Source: Flavobacterium sp. (lineage in GTDB: Bacteria; Bacteroidota; Bacteroidia; Flavobacteriales; Flavobacteriaceae). Taken from it: 40,846 nucleotides of DNA. The DNA is taken from NCBI GenBank assembly GCA_018883065.1, contig VEQT01000020.1, positions 1 to 40,846 on the forward strand, in the 5' to 3' direction. The stretch's first letter is position 1. Each line of letters opens with the position of its first letter. Of the stretch, positions 9,380 to 40,846 are shown in pieces. The notes under the pieces are model-generated. The model was not told where the DNA came from. It made no database searches and was given only the letters and a program-made list of their open reading frames with translations. Made by a program: the position numbers and the translations under genes.

Positions 9380-11749
9380 TTAACGTATTTGAAGGGTAAT
9401 TGGGTTTTTGAAATCGGTGAGCGGAATGATTAATTGGGTTTGATCTTTTGAGCGTACAAACGGAATGGGCTTGCCATTGGCGGTTACTTGAGAAACGGAT
9501 CGGGTAAACTGATGTAGGATTAAATTTACCTTTTTGGGCGCCGACACAAAGGCTTTTCCGGTTTCGGTAGAAAGTTTAATTTCGAGTATCTCGGGCGTGG
9601 TAGTTTGACTAAAATGCAACCTTTCGTAGGCCCCTGTTGCATAGGCATTGGGTGTTTTGCCATCATCGTTGTAGATACTTCCAGATGAAATTGGTGTAGC
9701 CTCATCGTGGTAATAATGCACATACAATTGGTTGAGTGTATATTCTCTCGTATTTTGAATGGTGTTAATCATCGGTATAAACGATCCGCCTCGCACGTAG
9801 ATGGGCAAATGATCATCGGCTACAGCCACTTCTTTTTGGGTTCCTCCAGAAATGCGTTCGTTGGTGTACCAATCAAACCAGGAATTGGTTTTAGGAAAAT
9901 AAACAGTTGTGGTTTTTACGTTGGGTTGTGTGATGGGTGTAACCAAAAAATTTGGTCCCCATAAATACGTGCTGCAATTGCTCCAAAGTGAAGTGTTTTG
10001 GGGTTCTTCAAAAATCAATGGACGCATGAGCGGAGTTCCTTTTTGACTGTTTTCGAAGGCCAAGGTGTAGTTGTATGGCAACATTTGGTAACGCATCTCC
10101 ACTAGTTTTTTGGCTTTGGCTTTGGTGTCAACGTCTTTATAAGCCACCTCTGAGGCTACGGCTTCGTGCGCATGCGGTCTGAAAATGGGCTGAAACACCC
10201 CATATTGCAACCAACGCAAATACAAATTATTGTCAAAGTAATCACCGGCAAAGCCACCCAAATCTGAGTGCATATACCCTATGCCTTGCATGCCCATTTC
10301 TAAGGCAATTTCAGGTTGTGATTGCAAGCCTTCCCAGGAACGACTTACGTCGCCACTCCACGGTATGATCCCGTAACGTTGGGAACCCGAATAGCCCGAT
10401 CGCATCAAGATAAACGGTCGTTGGTTGGAAAATTCGCGTTGGTAGCCCTCGGCAATGAGTTTGGCCCAGTTGTGTCCGTAAATGTTGTGCACCGTGCTGG
10501 CTTTTCCACCTACTGTAATGGCTTTGGAAGGGAAACTTTCGGGTTCGCCCAAATCGCCCCAAAAACCTGTTACACCTTGATTTATAAGTCCCTTATAGAT
10601 ATCCCAAAACCACTGTTTGGCTTGGGGCTTAAACACATCGATGATGCCAGTATGCCCAAAATAAAAATCATAGGTACACGTTTTGCCATCGGCTTGGGTG
10701 GCCAATACGCCTTTTTCTTCGGCTTCTTTCCATTTGGAAGAAGTGCTTAATACAAAAGGCTCGGTAATTAAAACGGTTTGTATGCCTTTGTCTTGAAAGG
10801 ACTTCATCATTTTTTCGGGATTGGGGAAGGTTTCTTTGTCCCAGCTCAAATTGCCCATAGTACCTTGAATGGTCTTTCCAAACCAGTACAAATCCAAAAT
10901 AATGGCGTCAAGCGGAATGCGGTCGTCTTGAAATTTCTGAATGGTTTTTTCGGTTTCTTCTTGTGAATGGTAGCCAAAGCGCGAAGCAAAATTGCCAAAA
11001 ACCCAACGCGGTGGCAAGGGTTGTAATCCGGTAAGTTGTGTATAGTTTTCGGTGAGTGCTGTCCATGAATTGGCGGCAATCACTTGGTAGGTTTTGCGAC
11101 CCGAAACAGATTCGTAAGCCAACGTATTATTTTTTTGGCTGTCTAAGTCCAAAAATCCCAAAGCCGAGTTGTCAAAATGCACCGCATACAACTGCGAGGA
11201 TAGTACCAACGGAATACAAAAGTTAAGTGTTTCGGCGCGGTTGCTGTAACCGTAGCGCGGTTGGTTTTTGAGTTCTAGTTTATTTCCGCGGCGATTCAAT
11301 CCCAAGGCGCGAGATCCCCCACCATACAAGGCTTCATTGGCCGAAATCGAAAAGTCAATTACAAAGGAACTGTCGCGCTGTACAAATCCATTTTTCTCGG
11401 ACAACAGCGGTTTATCGCGGTACCAATACTGCAGCTGAAAAGGCGCTTTTTGAATGCGCACTTCCAATCCAACCGAACGCAATCGAACTTCGTTTTTGGA
11501 ATCGGTTAGTTTGGTCTTCAAGGCCGTGGGTTGCATCACTACCGCATGAGAAGCAGCTGAAACCAATTCGCCCTTGGGTAAAAATGTGGTTTCAAAAATG
11601 GTTGCAGAATAGGGTGTAATGCGGTAAAGACCATCATTGGTTTGAATTTCTAAGGTATTTTTATTCCACTTTTGGCCCACAAACGAGCGGGTAGCCTGTT
11701 GCGCGAATGAGGCGGTACAAATCCAAAGAAAAAGCAAACGTAAGGTCAT
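9380..11749 (-). CDS. GH31-family alpha-glucosidase, secreted
   Basis: A 789-residue enzyme with a signal peptide (about residues 1-17, ending S-F-A-Q). Domains in order: N-terminal beta-sandwich (about 30-230), TIM barrel (about 240-580), and C-terminal beta domains including a DUF5110-type end. The catalytic nucleophile is D399 in G-F-W-G-D-L-G-E-P-E, and the acid/base is D467 in W-S-G-D-V-S. The likely reaction is removal of terminal alpha-linked glucose from maltodextrins or isomalto-oligosaccharides. Linkage preference cannot be read from sequence. It sits between two GH13 genes with 4-bp and 2-bp gaps. Confidence 0.93.
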   Translation of the reverse strand: MTLRLLFLWICTASFAQQATRSFVGQKWNKNTLEIQTNDGLYRITPYSATIFETTFLPKGELVSAASHAVVMQPTALKTKLTDSKNEVRLRSVGLEVRIQKAPFQLQYWYRDKPLLSEKNGFVQRDSSFVIDFSISANEALYGGGSRALGLNRRGNKLELKNQPRYGYSNRAETLNFCIPLVLSSQLYAVHFDNSALGFLDLDSQKNNTLAYESVSGRKTYQVIAANSWTALTENYTQLTGLQPLPPRWVFGNFASRFGYHSQEETEKTIQKFQDDRIPLDAIILDLYWFGKTIQGTMGNLSWDKETFPNPEKMMKSFQDKGIQTVLITEPFVLSTSSKWKEAEEKGVLATQADGKTCTYDFYFGHTGIIDVFKPQAKQWFWDIYKGLINQGVTGFWGDLGEPESFPSKAITVGGKASTVHNIYGHNWAKLIAEGYQREFSNQRPFILMRSGYSGSQRYGIIPWSGDVSRSWEGLQSQPEIALEMGMQGIGYMHSDLGGFAGDYFDNNLYLRWLQYGVFQPIFRPHAHEAVASEVAYKDVDTKAKAKKLVEMRYQMLPYNYTLAFENSQKGTPLMRPLIFEEPQNTSLWSNCSTYLWGPNFLVTPITQPNVKTTTVYFPKTNSWFDWYTNERISGGTQKEVAVADDHLPIYVRGGSFIPMINTIQNTREYTLNQLYVHYYHDEATPISSGSIYNDDGKTPNAYATGAYERLHFSQTTTPEILEIKLSTETGKAFVSAPKKVNLILHQFTRSVSQVTANGKPIPFVRSKDQTQLIIPLTDFKNPITLQIR

Positions 11750-33331: not shown

Positions 33332-33413
33332 GCGGGTATGGTGAAATTGGTAGACATGCCAGACTTAGGATCTGGTGCCGCAAGGCGTGTAGGTTCGAGT
33401 CCTATTACCCGCA
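33332..33413 (+). tRNA. tRNA-Leu (anticodon TAG)
   Basis: The 82-nt gene folds fully. Acceptor stem GCGGGTA pairs with TACCCGC, with discriminator A and no encoded CCA. The D arm contains TTGGTAGAC. The anticodon stem CCAGA/TCTGG encloses CTTAGGA, giving anticodon TAG (33366-33368). The long variable arm TGCCGCAAGGCGT is typical of class II tRNAs. The T arm is GTAGG-TTCGAGT-CCTAT. The region downstream looks like an integrated element, so this 3' end is the probable attachment site. Confidence 0.97.
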
Positions 33414-33420
33414 CTTTAAT

Positions 33421-33462
33421 AATCTCTAAAGCGTTAATAATAAACGATTTAGAGATTTTTTA
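33421..33462 (+). terminator. Terminator after tRNA-Leu
   Basis: Stem AATCTCTAAAGCG (33421-33433) pairs with CGATTTAGAGATT (33445-33457), with one mismatch and an 11-nt loop, followed by T-rich TTTTTATTTT. It would end the tRNA transcript. Confidence 0.8.
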
Positions 33463-33469
33463 TTTTAAT

Positions 33470-33490
33470 ATTCCCCGATAATTCCCCGAT
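33470..33490. repeat. Tandem ATTCCCCGAT repeats beside the integration site
   Basis: ATTCCCCGAT occurs at 33470-33479 and 33481-33490, with an 11-bp period. It lies about 57 bp after the tRNA end and may be an integrase or excisionase arm-type binding site. No function is proven. Confidence 0.5.
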
Positions 33491-33556
33491 TTTTGATTTT
33501 ATATGTTAGCTCATTTAATTTCATTAAATTCGATTAATTATAATAAAAGCGATTAA

Positions 33557-34462
33557 ATGGCACTTAAATATTTTAATATTCTTGATATACGAACATTTTC
33601 AGATAAGTCGGAAAATGAGCAAAAAGTCATTTTGATTGAAAAAAACATTTATGAAATAGGCACAAGCATTCAGAGTGATATTTCTTTAGATGAATATGAA
33701 ATTCAGCGAGGGAGTAATAATTATCCAAAGTATCTCGGTCAAGATTTTGAATTAAACGGTGTCAATTACAAATTAAACGATGATTTTTTAGATGAAGTTT
33801 TTAATGAATGTATAAACTATCACAAATCTCATCATACGGCACTAATTGAAAATAATATTGAAACCCTAAAATTGCAAGCGGAACTTTCCGGAGACAATTT
33901 CATTAATGAACAGCGTCAAAAGGAAATTAAGAATTATAACGGCTATCTTTCTAAAAATCTCTTTAAAAAGCTTCACAAATTAGATTTTGAAAATGAGCAA
34001 GAACATTTTGATATACTTAAAAGTTATCTCGCTGTAAATTGGTTTGATTTATCGGATTATCTGTTTGGCTTAAACAATATTTCAAATTATCATATTGTTT
34101 CAACTTATTACAGCTATATGAGAACGAATAGGACATTGTTTTTATTAAACTCTAAAATAGTAAACGATGAAACTGTTGAAAAAGAAGATAAGAAATTCAG
34201 CAGACCAAAATTCATTGCAATGCTAAATGAATTAGGCTTTTTTAAATGGAACTCTATAAAAGATTTATCCAATGAACAAAAAGCAAAAATTATCCTAGCA
34301 TTACTTCAACAAGATTACAATAGCAAAAGTGCTATTCACAATGTTGTAAAAAATTTTCAAGCACTAAATCCACAAAGCGAATTAAATCCCAAAAAATTTA
34401 CTGCAAGCACCCATTTGGAGGAGGTAAAAAAGACTTTGAACAAAATATCTAATAAATTGTAA
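33557..34462 (+). CDS. Hypothetical protein of the accessory element
   Basis: A 301-residue protein not recognised. It is soluble, rich in K, N, E and largely helical by eye, with no signal peptide or membrane segment. The C-terminal part (about 230-301: F-F-K-W-N-S-I-K-D-L and A-K-I-I-L-A-L-L-Q-Q) resembles a small helical or DNA-binding domain, but no motif is decisive. It is the first gene of the element after the tRNA, in the position where regulators of mobile elements are often found. The coding sequence is more AT-rich than the starch locus. Confidence 0.8.
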   Translation: MALKYFNILDIRTFSDKSENEQKVILIEKNIYEIGTSIQSDISLDEYEIQRGSNNYPKYLGQDFELNGVNYKLNDDFLDEVFNECINYHKSHHTALIENNIETLKLQAELSGDNFINEQRQKEIKNYNGYLSKNLFKKLHKLDFENEQEHFDILKSYLAVNWFDLSDYLFGLNNISNYHIVSTYYSYMRTNRTLFLLNSKIVNDETVEKEDKKFSRPKFIAMLNELGFFKWNSIKDLSNEQKAKIILALLQQDYNSKSAIHNVVKNFQALNPQSELNPKKFTASTHLEEVKKTLNKISNKL

Positions 34463-34559
34463 TTGTGTTTTATTTGAATTTGGTGGAATAAGTTGGTGGA
34501 TTCCACCCCCTCTGATGCGAATTAATTTTGACTCATAATAATTTAAACAAGTTAATATT

Positions 34560-34853
34560 ATGAGAGAAACAATCCAAATCGAAAACATTAATTCAGAGGA
34601 TTTCAAAAACCAAATCATCAATGGAGTAGTTGAGCAAATGAAAAATTTGTCTCAAAATTTTACTGCGAAAGTAGAACCCGACACACTTCTCACACGAGAA
34701 GAAACTGCAAAATTGCTTTCAATTTCTTTAGTCTCCCTTTGGAGCTTAACTAAACAAAAAACTTTCCCAGTTTATCATATTGGTAAAAGCGTTAGGTATA
34801 AGAAAAGTGAGGTCTTAAATGCTTTAGAGCAAATGAATAAATGCAATCATTAA
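34560..34853 (+). CDS. Excisionase/HTH_17-like DNA-binding protein
   Basis: A 97-residue protein with an N-terminal helical extension (about 1-38). A MerR-like winged helix follows: L-L-T-R-E-E-T-A-K-L-L-S-I-S then S-L-W-S-L-T-K-Q and V-Y-H-I-G-K-S-V-R-Y-K-K-S-E-V. This is the family of excisionases and element-borne regulators. It is followed after 9 bp by a small gene and then the primase-helicase gene, suggesting one operon for maintenance or transfer of the element. Confidence 0.85.
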   Translation: MRETIQIENINSEDFKNQIINGVVEQMKNLSQNFTAKVEPDTLLTREETAKLLSISLVSLWSLTKQKTFPVYHIGKSVRYKKSEVLNALEQMNKCNH

Positions 34854-34862
34854 TTCCTTGCC

Positions 34863-35186
34863 ATGAATGCTTATAATGACATCGTTTTGCAAGATGTTTT
34901 TTTTCATCTGTCAAAACTCAAAGGCGATTTTGCAAAGCTAAAAATCGAAAATAACAGAAATCAATTATTAGTCTTTGCAATGAATGATTTTACTAATAAA
35001 ATTGAATTAATTGAGCAAATAATTAAAAGCTATGATAGCCATAATTTTAAATCAATTACCAACAAAATTAATTCAGTTTTATTAGGAGACCCTGAATTGC
35101 ATTGTGTAAATGTAATTATCAAGAAAAGTAAATTTTTATCTCAAATTGATAAATCGAAAACCGCTTTAATTATTCATTTAATATGA
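34863..35186 (+). CDS. Small hypothetical protein of the element
   Basis: A 107-residue protein, not recognised. It has a helical, K/N/I-rich sequence with no signal peptide or clear motif. Its stop codon overlaps the next start in an ATGA overlap (35183-35186), which points to translational coupling with the primase-helicase. Confidence 0.7.
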   Translation: MNAYNDIVLQDVFFHLSKLKGDFAKLKIENNRNQLLVFAMNDFTNKIELIEQIIKSYDSHNFKSITNKINSVLLGDPELHCVNVIIKKSKFLSQIDKSKTALIIHLI

Positions 35187-36388
35187 AAGATATAGAACAA
35201 TATATTAGGGTTGGTACAGATTATTTAAAAGAAATAAATCTACCGTTAATTAGTGGTGATTCTACAAAAATCTATTCAAAATGGAACAAGCATACAATTA
35301 TTGATGATTTTGGTCGGGATGCCTTAAACAAAATAAAAAAATACGAGGGATTTTGTATAATACCTTCACATTTAGACTATAAAAAGGAAGTAAATAACTT
35401 TATCAATCGCTACGAACCATTATCCTATAAAATTTCAGAAAAAGGAGATTGGAAAAACATTGAATTGTTTCTTCAACACATTTTTAATGAGCAATATGAA
35501 ATAGGTTTAGATTATTTAACTATACTCTGGAAAAACCCTATACAGATACTTCCTATTCTATGTTTAGTAAGCTCCGAAAGGAACACAGGGAAATCTACCT
35601 TTCTAAAATTGTTAAAATTGATTTTTGAGGGTAACATGACAATTAATAAAAATGAGGATTTTAGAAGTCGTTTTAATTCGGATTGGGCTTCAAAGCTAAT
35701 TATTGCAATTGACGAAGTATTATTAGATAAAAAGGAAGATAGTGAACGCATCAAAAATCTATCAACATCCGGTCATTATAAAAGTGAAAGTAAAGGCGTT
35801 GATAAAGCAGAGATTGAATTTTTTGGCAAGTTTATTTTATGCTCCAATAACGAAGAAAATTTTATCAAAACCGACAATAAAGAGATTAGATACTGGGTTA
35901 GAAAAATAGAACCATTTACTGAAGAAAATCCAAACTTATTGGAAATGATGAAATACGAAGTTCCTAACTTTATTTGGTTTTTAACCAATAGAGAAATTAA
36001 AACGAAAAGAACTACTCGAATGTGGTTTACAAAAGAACAAATACATACAAAGGCACTTGACGTTTTAGTTAATGGAAACAAAACTTATACTGAAAAAGAA
36101 TTAGAAGACTTCATAATAGAGCAATTCCAAACCCTCGAAATGGATGAATTATGCTATTCGACAAATGACCTTATCGAAGAGCTTAACAAAGCTAATATTA
36201 GAGTTACTAAAAGTTATATCTCAACTATAATTACTGAACACTTTAAATTAGAATCTAAAAACAGTTGTTATAAACTATCCCGTTTAGATTTGTCAACTGC
36301 AAATAATGGAAGTTGGAGCGTTTATCAGGAAAACAGAAAAGGTAGATTTTACACTTTCAGAAAAGAAGACTTTATAAAATCATGTTGA
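35183..36388 (+). CDS. D5/DUF5906-like primase-helicase of a mobile element
   Basis: A 401-residue protein of the SF3-type helicase group found in phage/plasmid primases. Walker A S-E-R-N-T-G-K-S-T (131-139), Walker B K-L-I-I-A-I-D-E (171-178), and the sensor-like F-I-L-C-S-N-N-E. A C-terminal winged-helix-like region with D-L-I-E-E-L-N-K-A-N-I-R-V-T follows. No primase (AEP) domain is present, so a partner primase may be elsewhere. Its presence suggests that the element can replicate. The repeat-rich spacer immediately after it is a candidate origin. Confidence 0.85.
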   Translation: MKDIEQYIRVGTDYLKEINLPLISGDSTKIYSKWNKHTIIDDFGRDALNKIKKYEGFCIIPSHLDYKKEVNNFINRYEPLSYKISEKGDWKNIELFLQHIFNEQYEIGLDYLTILWKNPIQILPILCLVSSERNTGKSTFLKLLKLIFEGNMTINKNEDFRSRFNSDWASKLIIAIDEVLLDKKEDSERIKNLSTSGHYKSESKGVDKAEIEFFGKFILCSNNEENFIKTDNKEIRYWVRKIEPFTEENPNLLEMMKYEVPNFIWFLTNREIKTKRTTRMWFTKEQIHTKALDVLVNGNKTYTEKELEDFIIEQFQTLEMDELCYSTNDLIEELNKANIRVTKSYISTIITEHFKLESKNSCYKLSRLDLSTANNGSWSVYQENRKGRFYTFRKEDFIKSC

Positions 36389-36600: not shown

Positions 36601-36917
36601 TCGTATAAATAACTCCTAGTACTCTTTTTATTGCAGACTTAATTTATCGGTAAAACAGCACTTGCAAATAGGATTATAAATACTTTGCAAACATACACAA
36701 CAAGCATTGCAATACCCCTCAATTATTATTGCAATTCAATTGCAATAGCCTAAATAAGTGTTGAAAATTAACGCATTACACATTGCTAACGACTAATTAA
36801 TCATTGCAATCCTATTGCAATTCTTTTAAACTTCATTGCAATCCTAATTTCCTTTGTAAAACAATTATTGCAAAGCCGTTGATTTTTTTATATTTACAGA
36901 AACAAATCAATTGCAAT
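36403..36917. repeat. Nine-copy ATTGCAAT palindrome array
   Basis: Exact copies start at 36403, 36472, 36706, 36728, 36739, 36803, 36814, 36835 and 36910. Intervals of 22, 11, 11 and 21 bp within the two clusters keep the sites on one DNA face. A near copy (ATTGCAAA) at 36867 overlaps the predicted -33 of the restriction gene, and the last copy overlaps its ATG. By base composition about 0.02 copies would be expected in this length. The binding protein is unknown. Confidence 0.75.
36868..36896 (+). promoter_or_regulatory. Predicted promoter of the Type IIG gene
   Basis: TTG (36868-36870), an 18-bp spacer and TATATTTA (36889-36896). The start codon is 20 bp downstream. ATTGCAAT-type sites overlap the -33 element and the start codon, so it is likely regulated. 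Confidence 0.5.
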
Positions 36918-39900
36918 GAATATTCAACTTCTTGAACCTCGAAAAGCATTAAATAAAGCATTTCTAAAAATCAAACCAAATAGAACTGGAATTGAATTAT
37001 TCAAATCCAATTTAATTGCAATTTTAGATTCTATCAACGAAAAAGAAAGCGAAGAGTTTCATAAAAATCTTGTCATTGAGTTTTTAAAGAAAACCTATTA
37101 TGACCCTACTAATTTTGTAAATACCAAAGGCAGAAACGATTTAGTAATTCATAATGGTAAAGATGCCAAAACTAGTGTTGGAGTTATAATAGAGGTTAAA
37201 AGTCCAACTAATAAATCTGAAATGGTTTCCGTTGACAATCTCAACGGAAAAGCATTGCAAGAATTAGTTTTATATTATATGCGTGAGCGTATTACTCATA
37301 AAAATACCGAATTAAAACACGTTGTAATTTCAAACATACACGAATGGTTTGTTTTTGATGCACAGCTATTTAATAAGTTGTTTGCAGAAAACAAAACCTT
37401 TGTCAAGCAATTTATTGATTTTGAAGAGAAACGTTTGTCAGGGAGTAAAACGGATTATTTTTACAACGATATTGCAAAACCATACATTGCAAGTTTGCAA
37501 GGCACCATTGAGTTTGCGCATTTCGACATTAGAAAGTACGACAAACCATTGCGCAATAATGATAAAAATGACGACAAAAGTCTAATTGCATTATTCAAAT
37601 TACTTTCTCCGGAACATTTATTAAAGTTATCATTTGCAAATGACAGCAATTCATTAGATAAAAACTTTTACAATGAATTACTTCACATTATAGGTTTGAC
37701 CGAAGTAAAAGAGGGAGGCAAAAAGCTAATAAAACGCCATGAGAAGGAAAATAGAAATGATGGTTCGCTACTTGAAAATGCAATATTACAACTTGAGAGT
37801 GAAGATAAACTAAACTACATCTCTAATTTAAAGCAATACGGGGATAACAAAGAACAACAACTCTTTGCAATAGGATTAGAGCTTACAATTACTTGGGTGA
37901 ATAGAATTTTATTTCTAAAATTACTCGAAGCTCAATTAATATCATATCATAAAGGCGATAAAAGCTACTCGTTTTTAAATGCAGAATTAATAAAGGATTA
38001 TGATGTTTTAAATAACCTTTTCTTTAAAGTTTTAGCAAAAAAAACGGATGAACGTATTGATAGATTAGTAAAAGATTTTGAAAAAGTACCTTACTTAAAT
38101 AGTTCCTTATTTGAGCCAACTGAATTAGAAAGAATTGCATTGTCTATTAACCAATTAGAAGATAATATTTCTTTACCATTATTGCCTTCTACCGTAATTA
38201 AAGATGCGAATGGTAAGAAAGTAACTGGGACTAAAAATGCTTTAAATTATTTCTTTTCGTTTCTCGATGCTTATGACTTTGCAAGTGAAGGAAGTGAAGA
38301 CATTCAAGAAGACAATAAAACTTTAATCAATGCTTCTGTACTTGGGTTAATATTTGAAAAAATCAATGGTTACAAAGATGGCTCATTCTTTACACCTAGT
38401 TTTATTACTATGTATATGTGTAAAGAAACTATCCGAAGAACTGTTTTGCAAAAGTTTAACGATGAATTGCAATGGTCTTGCAATGACTTTTCTGAATTAT
38501 ACAACAACATAAAAGACAAAAAAGAAGCTAATAGTATAATCAACTCTATAAAAATTTGTGACCCAGCGGTTGGTTCGGGGCATTTTTTAGTTTCGGCATT
38601 AAATGAAATCATAGCCATTAAACACGATTTAGGAATTTTAATTGATAATCAAGGTAAGACCTTACGTGATTATGCAATTGAAGTTGTAAATGACGAATTG
38701 ATTATTACCGATGATGATGGTATTCCATTTCAATACAATATATCCAATAAAGAAAGTCAACGCATTCAAGAAACTCTGTTTCACGAAAAACAAACCATTA
38801 TTGAAAATTGTCTTTTTGGTGTAGATTTAAATCCAAATTCCGTAAAAATTTGCCGTTTACGTTTGTGGATTGAATTACTTAAAAATGCTTATTACAAAAA
38901 CGATAGCAATGAGTTAGAAACGCTTCCAAACATCGATATTAATATTAAATGTGGAAACTCTTTAATTTCTCGATTTGATTTGGATGCCGATTTAAAGCAA
39001 ACCTTGAAAAAAAGTAAGTTAACAATTCAGTCTTATAAAGATGCCGTTAAAACTTATCAAAATGCAGATAGTAAAGAACAAAAAAAGGAAATGGAAGATT
39101 TAATTGCCAATATAAAAAGCAATTTTAAAACTGAAATAAGTGCTAACAGTAAAGAAATAAGAGACCTCCAAAAAATAACATTTGAATACAACAACAAATA
39201 TGTAACGGAACAACTTTTTGAAGTTCAACTAACCAAAGCCCAATTAAAAGATAAAAAACAACTTGAAGAGAAAATTAAAAATCATCAGGCAATTATTGAC
39301 GATATAAAAACCAACAAAATTTATGAAAATGCTTTTGAATGGAGATTTGAATTTCCTGAAGTATTGAATGATGAAGGTGATTTCATTGGATTTGATGCTA
39401 TAATTGGAAACCCTCCTTACATCCAATTACAAAAAATGGGGGTGGATGGTGCTTCTCTGGAAAAAATGAAATTTGAAACATATGTTAGAACAGGAGATAT
39501 TTATAGCTTGTTTTATGAATTAGGGTTTAAATTGCTCAAAGAGAATGGATTGTTAGCTTATATAACATCGAATAAATGGATGAGAGCAGCATATGGAGAA
39601 AGTCTTCGAAAATACTTTGTTGAAAAAACAAATCCTTTTTTGCTACTTGATTTTGGTGGTGTTCAGGTATTTGATTCCGCAACGGTTGATACAAATATTT
39701 TAATTGGCTGTAAAGCAAAATATGATGGTAATACAAATGCGTGTTTATTAAATAACGATTTTGACCCCGAATTATTAGAAAGCTTTATAAAAAACAATTC
39801 TACTTCAACACGTTTTAAAAATGAAAGTTGGGTTGTTTTATCTTCTGTTGAAAAAAGGATAAAAGAGAAAATAGAAAAAATAGGAACTCCTTTAAAAGAT

Positions 39901-40059
39901 TGGGATATAAATATATATCGAGGGATTTTAACAGGTTACAATGATGCTTTTATAATAGATGGAAAGAAAAGAGATGAATTAATAAAAGAAGATCCAAAAA
40001 GTGCCGACATTATAAGACTCTTTTTTTCAAACATATCTAATTCACTAGTACTGAATTGA
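36916..40059 (+). CDS. Type IIG (Eco57I-like) restriction-modification enzyme, truncated in this orientation
   Basis: A 1047-residue protein. A PD-(D/E)XK nuclease is at the N terminus (D75, E93-V-K95). A helical connector follows, then a gamma-type N6-adenine methyltransferase with S-F-F-T-P-S-F, motif I D549-P-A-V-G-S-G-H-F and motif IV N832-P-P-Y. The target-recognition region begins at about residue 900 but breaks off: after S-A-D-I-I-R (residue 1034) come 13 unrelated residues and a stop. Such enzymes need this region for DNA specificity, so this form is probably inactive. The missing part lies inverted just downstream (40012-40646). Inverting it gives a continuous frame of about 1244 residues. 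Expression is likely tied to the ATTGCAAT sites. Confidence 0.88.
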   Translation: MNIQLLEPRKALNKAFLKIKPNRTGIELFKSNLIAILDSINEKESEEFHKNLVIEFLKKTYYDPTNFVNTKGRNDLVIHNGKDAKTSVGVIIEVKSPTNKSEMVSVDNLNGKALQELVLYYMRERITHKNTELKHVVISNIHEWFVFDAQLFNKLFAENKTFVKQFIDFEEKRLSGSKTDYFYNDIAKPYIASLQGTIEFAHFDIRKYDKPLRNNDKNDDKSLIALFKLLSPEHLLKLSFANDSNSLDKNFYNELLHIIGLTEVKEGGKKLIKRHEKENRNDGSLLENAILQLESEDKLNYISNLKQYGDNKEQQLFAIGLELTITWVNRILFLKLLEAQLISYHKGDKSYSFLNAELIKDYDVLNNLFFKVLAKKTDERIDRLVKDFEKVPYLNSSLFEPTELERIALSINQLEDNISLPLLPSTVIKDANGKKVTGTKNALNYFFSFLDAYDFASEGSEDIQEDNKTLINASVLGLIFEKINGYKDGSFFTPSFITMYMCKETIRRTVLQKFNDELQWSCNDFSELYNNIKDKKEANSIINSIKICDPAVGSGHFLVSALNEIIAIKHDLGILIDNQGKTLRDYAIEVVNDELIITDDDGIPFQYNISNKESQRIQETLFHEKQTIIENCLFGVDLNPNSVKICRLRLWIELLKNAYYKNDSNELETLPNIDINIKCGNSLISRFDLDADLKQTLKKSKLTIQSYKDAVKTYQNADSKEQKKEMEDLIANIKSNFKTEISANSKEIRDLQKITFEYNNKYVTEQLFEVQLTKAQLKDKKQLEEKIKNHQAIIDDIKTNKIYENAFEWRFEFPEVLNDEGDFIGFDAIIGNPPYIQLQKMGVDGASLEKMKFETYVRTGDIYSLFYELGFKLLKENGLLAYITSNKWMRAAYGESLRKYFVEKTNPFLLLDFGGVQVFDSATVDTNILIGCKAKYDGNTNACLLNNDFDPELLESFIKNNSTSTRFKNESWVVLSSVEKRIKEKIEKIGTPLKDWDINIYRGILTGYNDAFIIDGKKRDELIKEDPKSADIIRLFFSNISNSLVLN
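40012..40018 (+). repeat. Left inverted-repeat site of the putative invertible cassette
   Basis: ATAAGAC lies in the restriction gene, where it encodes the end of I-I-R. Its inverted partner is GTCTTAT at 40640-40646. Recombination between them would restore the long frame. Flanks are only partly similar (ATTA before, TTTT shortly after), so the true crossover site may be longer and imperfect. Confidence 0.6.
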
Positions 40060-40646
40060 TATAATTCATAAAAAATTCCATCTAGTTGTTTTTCTATTTT
40101 TAATCTTTCATTTTCATCGTCTAGCTCTCTAATTTCATCGACCAAACTATTTATTTTTGTCTCTAAATGACTTTCGATTTTTGGAACTGAAATATTATCA
40201 AAGGCTTGTACACTTATTAACAAGTCTCCCGTGCCGGTTTTAGGAGAATCTTGTAAAATATAATTCCCAATTTTAGAATTAAAAAAAGCAGTTAAATATT
40301 TGATGCTTTCACCAGTAGCAAAACACGTGCTGTCAAGTGAAATACAACCTGTCTCATCAAAACTAAAACGCAAAATTGAACCTATTCTTTTCCAAACAAT
40401 TTTCTGTTTAGAAAAATCCTCGATATAAGCACAGTTCCTCAAATTATAAATTGTGTCTCCTTTGTCTAGTCTTTTCTCCAATTGCAATAAGTATTTATCA
40501 AAATGATTTTTGATTGCTGGGTAATCATTAATGTTTATTGGACTTATCCCTTTTTCTTTTAATCCGTTGTGAGAATTAATTAGCCACAAATCAGCAAAAT
40601 CATAGCTGTATTTTTTTATATCTCTGCCACGTAAAATCGGTCTTAT
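40012..40646 (-). CDS. Silent C-terminal specificity cassette of the Type IIG enzyme (no start codon)
   Basis: Open on the minus strand, but with no ATG and no ribosome-binding context. It begins I-R-P-I-L-R-G-R-D-I-K-K-Y-S-Y-D-F, the conserved junction of Eco57I-type enzymes. It continues through W-K-R-I-G-S-I-L-R-F and F-F-N-S-K-I-G-N-Y-I-L to a family-like C terminus with L-D-G-I-F-Y-E-L-Y, then M-F-E-K-K. After that the frame runs into antisense of the plus-strand gene. In forward orientation it would join residue 1034 of the enzyme in frame and end S-L-I plus TAA at 40648-40650. It is therefore a switchable or stored module rather than a separate gene. Confidence 0.8.
40640..40646 (-). 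repeat. Right inverted-repeat site of the putative invertible cassette
   Basis: GTCTTAT on the plus strand is the inverse of ATAAGAC at 40012. On the minus strand it reads I-R-(P) in the cassette frame, and in the neighbouring frame it contains the stop TAA of the next module (40643-40645). Confidence 0.6.
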
Positions 40647-40846
40647 TTAATTTCTATAAAACCAATTGCTTTTCTGTCATCTTCATCAATTTCATGAATA
40701 TCAAAAATTAATTCATCTAATTCCTTTTCCAATTGGGTAGTTGAAATATTGTCTTTTTTTAATTCTTCTATCATTTTAATCAAAACAGATATTTTTTCAT
40801 CTGTATCGGTTTCAACTTTTTTTACAAAAACTTTATCAAAGTATAT
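40643..40846 (-). CDS. C-terminal end of a second Type IIG specificity module (partial, runs off the window)
   Basis: The minus strand is open from the window edge to a stop at 40643-40645 and gives 67 residues. They include Y-F-D-K-V-F-V-K-K-V, a predicted coiled-coil stretch E-L-K-K-D-N-I-S-T-T-Q-L-E-K-E-L, and the family-like tail L-I-F-D-I-H-E-I-D-E-D-D-R-K-A-I-G-F-I-E-I-K. This matches the C-terminal ends of Eco57I-type enzymes and differs from the first cassette. It may be an alternative specificity module or the 3' end of another intact gene beyond the window. Confidence 0.7.
   Translation of the reverse strand: MYFDKVFVKKVETDTDEKISVLIKMIEELKKDNISTTQLEKELDELIFDIHEIDEDDRKAIGFIEIK

What the first reader, a model, noticed from the sequence alone, without database searches (positions are those of the whole stretch)
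39936..40650. Inverted specificity cassette that would complete the truncated Type IIG restriction-modification gene
The plus-strand gene stops 13 codons after S-A-D-I-I-R, in the target-recognition region. Directly downstream, on the opposite strand, lies a start-less frame that begins I-R-P-I-L-R-G-R-D, which is exactly what should follow. The bounds are ATAAGAC (40012-40018) and GTCTTAT (40640-40646). Reversing the segment between them gives one open frame of about 1244 codons: the left junction reads ATT-ATA-AGA-CCG, and the right junction reads AGT-CTT-ATT-TAA. Both junctions stay in frame and a stop falls right after the second. Such a perfect fit is hard to explain by chance. It suggests a reversible on/off or specificity switch. 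Switches of this sort are known for Type I hsdS and BREX pglX, and seem uncommon for single-chain Type IIG enzymes. The recombinase is not in the window.
Basis: partly seen in the sequence, partly recalled or inferred. Interest (0 to 1): 0.93.

Follow-up and report, generated by a model that had tools for sequence, protein, structure and literature searches.

The report
Flipped tail of a switchable restriction enzyme
In a bacterial gene predicted to encode a one-piece restriction enzyme, the part that would recognise DNA lies back to front between two 7-base inverted repeats, likely the "off" position of a DNA switch that would also change which sequence the enzyme recognises.

Summary
Inverting 40012-40646 in silico turns the truncated Type IIG gene into a 1244-codon frame. 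It aligns without a gap to an intact 1244-aa natural protein, P0001 (core 89.4%, cassette 79.5%, junction 27/31). Forward is therefore the coding order; the window holds the reverse. Past the right repeat the minus strand carries the C-terminus of a probable second cassette, cut by the contig end.

Relatives explain the design. In 13 of 80 fetched loci a convergent silent TRD piece lies beside a ~200-aa serine invertase. Two Lactococcus IIG plasmids carry the same cassettes in exchanged positions. I read the window as the OFF state of such a switch.

Not shown: reversibility here, the invertase (no serine recombinase found in this assembly), or that the right repeat is a true site (absent from 14 of 14 relatives' junctions). 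Programmed inversion of Type II systems has been reported (recalled, not read): a new variant of a known kind.

The parts
36916..40059 (+). Truncated Type IIG restriction-methyltransferase ORF, 1047 aa (DUF7149, DUF7814, Eco57I methylase, first half-TRD), as it stands
   Evidence: motifs EVKSP at residue 93, DPAVGSGHFL at 549, NPPY at 832 (their catalytic meaning is recalled)
40012..40646 (-). Inverted segment carrying the second half-TRD (TRD2) and C-terminus; would complete the gene in the other orientation
39939..40646 (-). Start-less 236-codon minus-strand frame IRPILRGRD...; its last ~24 codons are antisense to the core gene
40012..40018 (+). Left repeat ATAAGAC, at I-I-R-P (site B)
   Evidence: same place as the start of the TRD2-only silent cassettes in L139 and L161
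40640..40646 (-). Right repeat GTCTTAT, at the convergent stop codons of the two cassettes in the forward form
   Evidence: not found at 14 of 14 relatives' junctions
40643..40846 (-). C-terminal 67 codons and stop of a probable second TRD2 cassette, cut by the contig end
   Evidence: 31% identity over 52 residues, E 0.005; same C-terminus in L125; L057 similar

Best explanation
The window shows the second half of the predicted target-recognition domain (TRD2) of a Type IIG-family restriction-methyltransferase gene lying inverted, so that the frame is truncated, and this is likely the OFF state of a specificity switch run by a Mpi-family serine invertase whose gene is predicted to lie just beyond the contig end. 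Shown: the inverted segment, the 1244-codon forward frame, an intact natural homologue in that order, and in relatives the silent cassettes, paired inverted sites and adjacent invertase. Inferred: the invertase would recombine site B (ATAAGAC at I-I-R-P) with an inverted partner; with a site at the start of the silent TRD2 it would swap recognition halves, and with the site at the convergent stop codons it would turn TRD2 round and end the protein 13 codons past site B. Because nuclease and methylase share one chain and one TRD, such a flip should silence both together and not leave the nuclease unchecked.
For: Forward ORF aligns gaplessly to P0001 over 1244 of 1244 residues; P0001 matches the plus and then the minus strand of the window. 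F. yafengii (L055/L139) and G376 (L161) have an invertase beside a TRD2-only silent cassette that begins at the window's left breakpoint position; window, P0001 and L055 all lack the SDYFRQ stretch of site A. Invertase within the flank in 13 of 80 relatives, each with a convergent TRD ORF; the two tested pass NCBIfam NF009949, Mpi family. Paired inverted site A in 9 of those 13. Two Lactococcus plasmids with the same invertase protein carry cassettes in exchanged positions: 496 bp at 99.2% and 535 bp at 85%, backbone 91.7%. TRD1 exchanged between L057 and L058 and both halves between L088 and L089. Four contigs end at the sites (L098, L100, L174, L162). A probable second cassette lies beside the inverted one.
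Against: No PF00239 hit in the own genome and no hit to the F. yafengii invertase there at E <= 1e-30. The two sites share only 7 bp. The right repeat is absent from 14 of 14 relatives' convergent junctions. No other locus seen is in this OFF form: of 54 relatives reaching site B, 44 have at least 150 aa beyond it and no antisense cassette was found at the core. No general excess of contig ends downstream (11 of 70 against 13 of 70 upstream within 1 kb; 19 against 14 within 1.6 kb). Exchanged cassettes between species could also come from horizontal transfer; three TRD1 pairs and two TRD2 pairs were flagged as unexchanged. No reads were available.
Confidence: 0.68

Rival explanations
1. A one-off accidental inversion at a 7-bp microhomology made a dead gene; there is no working switch in this strain.
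For: Only 7 bp shared, right repeat not seen in relatives, no serine recombinase found in the assembly, OFF form seen only here.
Against: The left breakpoint coincides with the start of invertase-linked TRD2-only cassettes in F. yafengii and G376; the right one lies exactly at the stop codons; both frames are otherwise intact; the assembly simply ends 200 bp further on.
Confidence: 0.22
2. Assembly or library artefact: the forward form is the only one in the cells.
For: Contig of a 95-contig draft, ending 200 bp past the right site; no reads could be checked.
Against: A 7-bp overlap is far below usual assembly k-mers (established knowledge), and two matching reciprocal junctions are needed, where a chimeric read would make one (inference).
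Confidence: 0.08

Closest known systems
Gene-altering programmed inversions in Type II R-M systems (Milman, Yelin and Kishony 2023; title seen in the reference list shown, content recalled, paper not held)
   Same: Inversion between a gene and a partial copy changes the encoded restriction-modification protein
   Different: From recall I cannot say whether it names a Mpi-family invertase, a TRD2-only cassette or an OFF orientation
Phase-variable Type I hsdS inversion systems (Ben-Assa 2020, Atack 2020: titles seen in reference lists; passages on hsdS)
   Same: Inverted silent specificity cassettes exchanged by recombination
   Different: There a separate S subunit is changed; here the TRD is part of a single-chain nuclease-methylase. 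links its hsdS inverton group to tyrosine-type recombinases; here the neighbour is a serine invertase
Mpi, the global serine invertase of Bacteroides fragilis (passage)
   Same: Same NCBIfam family, NF009949
   Different: Mpi inverts at least thirteen scattered regions, among them polysaccharide loci; in the relatives here the family member sits beside one IIG gene
Phase-variable Type IIG enzyme of Campylobacter jejuni (Anjum 2016; title seen in the reference lists)
   Different: Recalled to work by a repeat tract and frameshift, not by DNA inversion

Membership tests
Type IIG restriction-modification enzyme | Nuclease, N6-adenine methylase and TRD in one chain | tested here: met
   Met by profile for the forward form and P0001: PDLC03612 spans both pieces, Eco57I methylase and DUF7149/7814, TaqI_C over cut-off in the minus frame (33.1 against 26.5) but just under it in P0001 (24.9). 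The present orientation lacks TRD2. The nuclease is read from a motif only.
Type IIG restriction-modification enzyme | Cuts and methylates DNA at one recognition sequence | not testable with these tools
   Needs enzyme or methylome data
Programmed (invertase-driven) gene-altering inversion | Inverted repeats flank the segment and both junctions keep the frame | tested here: met
   7-bp ATAAGAC/GTCTTAT; 1244-codon frame
Programmed (invertase-driven) gene-altering inversion | Recombinase gene in cis | tested here: inconclusive
   None in the window; 0 PF00239 hits in the own genome, but the contig ends before the place where relatives have it
Programmed (invertase-driven) gene-altering inversion | Both orientations occur in one population | not testable with these tools
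   No reads. Indirect only: exchanged cassettes between two Lactococcus plasmids
Mpi-family serine invertase (partner gene) | Score above NF009949 cut-off of 272 bits | tested here: met
   Relatives only: L139 329.5 and L057 343.8 bits. For the window's own genome no such gene was found
BREX PglX | Score above the NCBIfam cut-off | tested here: not met
   Best BREX model 83.9 bits against a cut-off of 500, plus-strand piece

The most novel reading that the evidence does not exclude
A three-position switch for a single-chain restriction enzyme: one serine invertase uses three sites, giving specificity 1, specificity 2 and a built-in OFF position in which the TRD half is parked back to front, so that nuclease and methylase are lost together and regained together.
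Probability: 0.3. Interest if true: 0.78.

Novelty: new variant of a known kind. Interest (0 to 1): 0.6.

Why it matters
Type IIG enzymes cut and methylate with one shared recognition domain, so swapping a TRD half should change both activities at once and not leave the nuclease unguarded. That would make them natural subjects for invertase-driven diversification of phage defence and of methylation patterns. The relatives give a concrete, testable machine: a small Mpi-family invertase, a ~20-bp site whose start GAGCGATTAT is shared by Bacteroidota and by Lactococcus plasmids, and half-TRD cassettes. The window suggests an extra OFF position.

Tried and rejected
A general excess of assembly breaks downstream of the gene was tested and not found: contig ends within 1 kb in 11 of 70 loci downstream and 13 of 70 upstream; within 1.6 kb 19 and 14. 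Seventy of the 80 loci were entered; left out were seven whose match stops before residue 900 (L078, L105, L109, L111, L117, L122, L127) and L118, L120, L132. Only individual contig ends at the sites are cited.

A tyrosine recombinase as the agent: 7 PF00589 hits in the own genome, none on this contig. In 18 relatives' genomes hits are many and the list was cut; I did not compare them with the loci one by one, so this is set aside, not excluded.

BREX PglX membership: far below cut-off. Phage origin of the enzyme: no match to P0001 in the phage collection at E <= 1e-50. Plasmids: no near-DNA match to the window gene; 13 records match P0001, all under 60% identity. H1 (Bacteroides finegoldii) shows two site-specific integrases upstream but no invertase annotated in the stretch shown. 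Other plasmid invertase neighbourhoods looked at (Pedobacter, Desulforapulum, Campylobacter lari, Parabacteroides) show no TRD cassette by annotation.

L055 and L096 minus-strand hits to the window's cassette frame are antisense core sequence, not cassettes.

The genome of P0001 could not be fetched: two draws of the genus (398 and 123 genomes) did not give it.

Literature: 10 of 10 searches used; no title or abstract start listed describes inversion of a Type IIG gene. Passages, not whole texts, were seen of PMC5903667, PMC5608340, PMC6753208, PMC4081073, PMC12632263, PMC11868660, PMC11892184 and PMC13076061. Milman 2023, Huang 2020 and Chanin 2024 are not held.

Full report
WHAT WAS CHECKED. 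The window is contig C71 of a 95-contig draft genome (2.39 Mb, 97.84% complete, 0.36% contamination) and the contig ends at 40846. Genomes of the window's own genus carry contigs of the same length as named Flavobacterium contigs (for example G282 and F. yafengii), so the genus is read as Flavobacterium (inference). The plus-strand ORF 36916-40059 encodes 1047 aa with DUF7149, DUF7814 and an Eco57I methylase domain. PADLOC names it a Type IIG restriction enzyme-methyltransferase (PDLC03612, E 3.5e-256, profile 3-1009 of 1247). The minus-strand frame from 40646 continues the same profile at 1024-1246 (E 2.1e-45) and carries a TaqI-like specificity domain. 'TRD1' and 'TRD2' below are my names for the two halves of the recognition region before and after I-I-R-P-I-L-R-G-R-D.

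FORWARD FORM. Inverting 40012-40646 in a script gives one 1244-codon frame. A protein search with it (region 930-1244) found P0001, also 1244 aa, from a 4.23-Mb contig. P0001 against the own genome returns residues 1-1035 on the plus strand (89%) and 1032-1236 on the minus strand (82%). A global alignment of the forward frame to P0001 has no gaps: 924/1034 identical in the core, 167/210 in the cassette, 27/31 across the junction, but 6/20 at the very C-terminus. Forward is therefore the coding order of a natural protein, and the window shows the same cassette turned round. The right breakpoint is read from the repeat and the stop codon, since P0001 diverges there.

SECOND CASSETTE. Beyond 40646 the minus strand encodes 67 aa ending IGFIEIK-stop. 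Its match to the first cassette is weak (31% over 52 residues, E 0.005), but the silent copy of L125 ends IGFIEIK-stop and that of L057 IGFIEIN. In the forward form the two cassettes would converge with overlapping ends; in relatives 13 of 14 such pairs overlap or lie within a few bases, L123 being apart. The right-hand repeat lies exactly at this meeting point.

RELATIVES. Of 171 relatives in GTDB genomes the best 80 were kept. A TRD ORF on the minus strand, convergent with the gene, was found in 14 of 80: L057, L058, L059, L084, L088, L089, L091, L092, L095, L099, L103, L123, L125 and L128; in L099 and L103 it is a short piece (133 and 145 aa). All of these but L059, whose contig ends, have a ~200-aa serine recombinase within the stored flank, 13 in all. 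Two of the invertases (L057, L139) were tested against NCBIfam and pass NF009949, master DNA invertase Mpi family. In 9 of the 14 a pattern search found a site like GAGCGATTATTTTAGACAG, called site A here, both in the gene upstream of TRD1 and, inverted, at the start of the silent copy; L059 and L128 show only the copy in the gene, and L099, L103 and L125 none. Above the silent site the two copies stop being alike, so the border is sharp. Site B is the I-I-R-P-I-L-R-G-R-D stretch; some pairs (L084, L088, L092, L125) share long identical stretches there, others little more than the coding similarity.

CLOSEST DESIGN. Flavobacterium yafengii (L055, best identity 78%), P0001 and the window all lack the SDYFRQ stretch that encodes site A. 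On another contig (L139) the F. yafengii invertase gene sits beside a silent cassette that begins ATTATTAATAGACCGATTTT = I-I-N-R-P-I, without a TRD1. The two contigs end in 117 identical bases. G376 (L161) has the same layout: invertase, TRD2-only cassette, then a convergent TRD2 cut by the contig end. G207 (L162) begins at such a site just 5' of its invertase. The window's left breakpoint, ATTATAAGACCGATTTT in the forward form, lies at this same place. In 7 of the 10 a TRD ORF lies beside it in the stretch fetched.

EVIDENCE THAT SUCH CASSETTES MOVE. Two Lactococcus plasmids carry an enzyme whose best PADLOC match is REase_MTase_IIG, a convergent silent piece and the same invertase protein WP_021164920.1. 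A 496-bp piece at 99.2% is expressed in one and silent in the other; a 535-bp piece at 85% shows the reverse; the backbone is 91.7% identical. The sites read GAGCGATTATGTACGACAAAAT in three of four places and GAGCGATTATGTTAAACAAAAT in the fourth, close to site A of Bacteroidota. In a matrix of 12 loci (13 entered, L128 dropped out for want of the motif) TRD1 is exchanged between Chryseobacterium L057 and L058 (94 and 91% across positions, 67 and 68% in the same position), both halves between L088 and L089, and TRD1 but not TRD2 between L091 and L092. In all, 5 TRD1 pairs and 4 TRD2 pairs were flagged exchanged, 3 and 2 unexchanged, and the rest undecided; TRD2 of L057 and L058 is mixed. Transfer between species could give the same picture. 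Expressed and silent TRD2 of one locus are only 28-40% identical, so different specificities are predicted. Four contigs end at the sites (L098 at B, L100 and L174 at A, L162 at B), as mixed orientations in the sequenced DNA would cause (inference), but there is no general excess of contig ends there.

AGAINST. No serine recombinase was found in the own genome (0 PF00239 hits; no hit to the F. yafengii invertase at E <= 1e-30). The sites share only 7 bp. The right repeat was found in 0 of 14 relatives' convergent junctions. Of 54 relatives among the 80 that reach residue 1015, 44 have at least 150 aa beyond; of the other 10, seven run open into the contig end, L108 breaks frame shortly before its end, L096 is truncated right after I-I-R-P with no TRD2 found, and L118 is short for a reason not examined. 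No antisense cassette at the core was found in these by the two searches made. The OFF form is thus seen only in the window.

MECHANISM. Shown: the inverted cassette, the forward frame, the conserved protein in that order, and the linked invertase and silent cassettes in relatives. Inferred: an invertase of the Mpi family beyond the contig end recombines site B with inverted partners. Joining the silent cassette would change the recognition half; joining the stop-codon site would park TRD2 backwards and truncate the enzyme. Loss of TRD2 should remove both methylation and cutting. The chief rival is a single accidental inversion that made a dead gene.

NOVELTY. From recall, Milman and colleagues (2023) already list Type II R-M systems among targets of gene-altering programmed inversions; here only the title could be seen, in a reference list. 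The kind is therefore taken as known. What the present calls add is the link to a Mpi-family invertase and a shared site start across phyla, the TRD2-only design, and an OFF orientation.

Noticed in passing
L125 (Helicobacter sp. 13S00482-2), around 11199 and 12487: Gene and silent partner share a long identical inverted repeat around site B, beside an invertase 58% identical to that of L057: the design reaches Campylobacterota.
   Followed up: partly
window 33332-36388: A tRNA-Leu gene is followed by an unknown ORF, an excisionase-like HTH protein and a DUF5906 (primase/helicase-like) protein just upstream of the IIG gene, as in an integrated mobile element.
   Followed up: no
L096 (Prevotellaceae MAG), near 11048: The IIG gene is cut right after I-I-R-P and no TRD2 was found on either strand, as if the cassette had been lost at site B.
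   Followed up: partly
L200 and L201 (Lactococcus plasmids pJM1F and pUCCL629A): An IIG-type methylase with an upstream DEAD/DEAH helicase gene uses the same invertase family and site; the two plasmids show the cassettes in exchanged positions.
   Followed up: partly
G014 contigs C223, C41, C50, C70: One genome holds several fragmentary relatives of this enzyme at contig ends.
   Followed up: no
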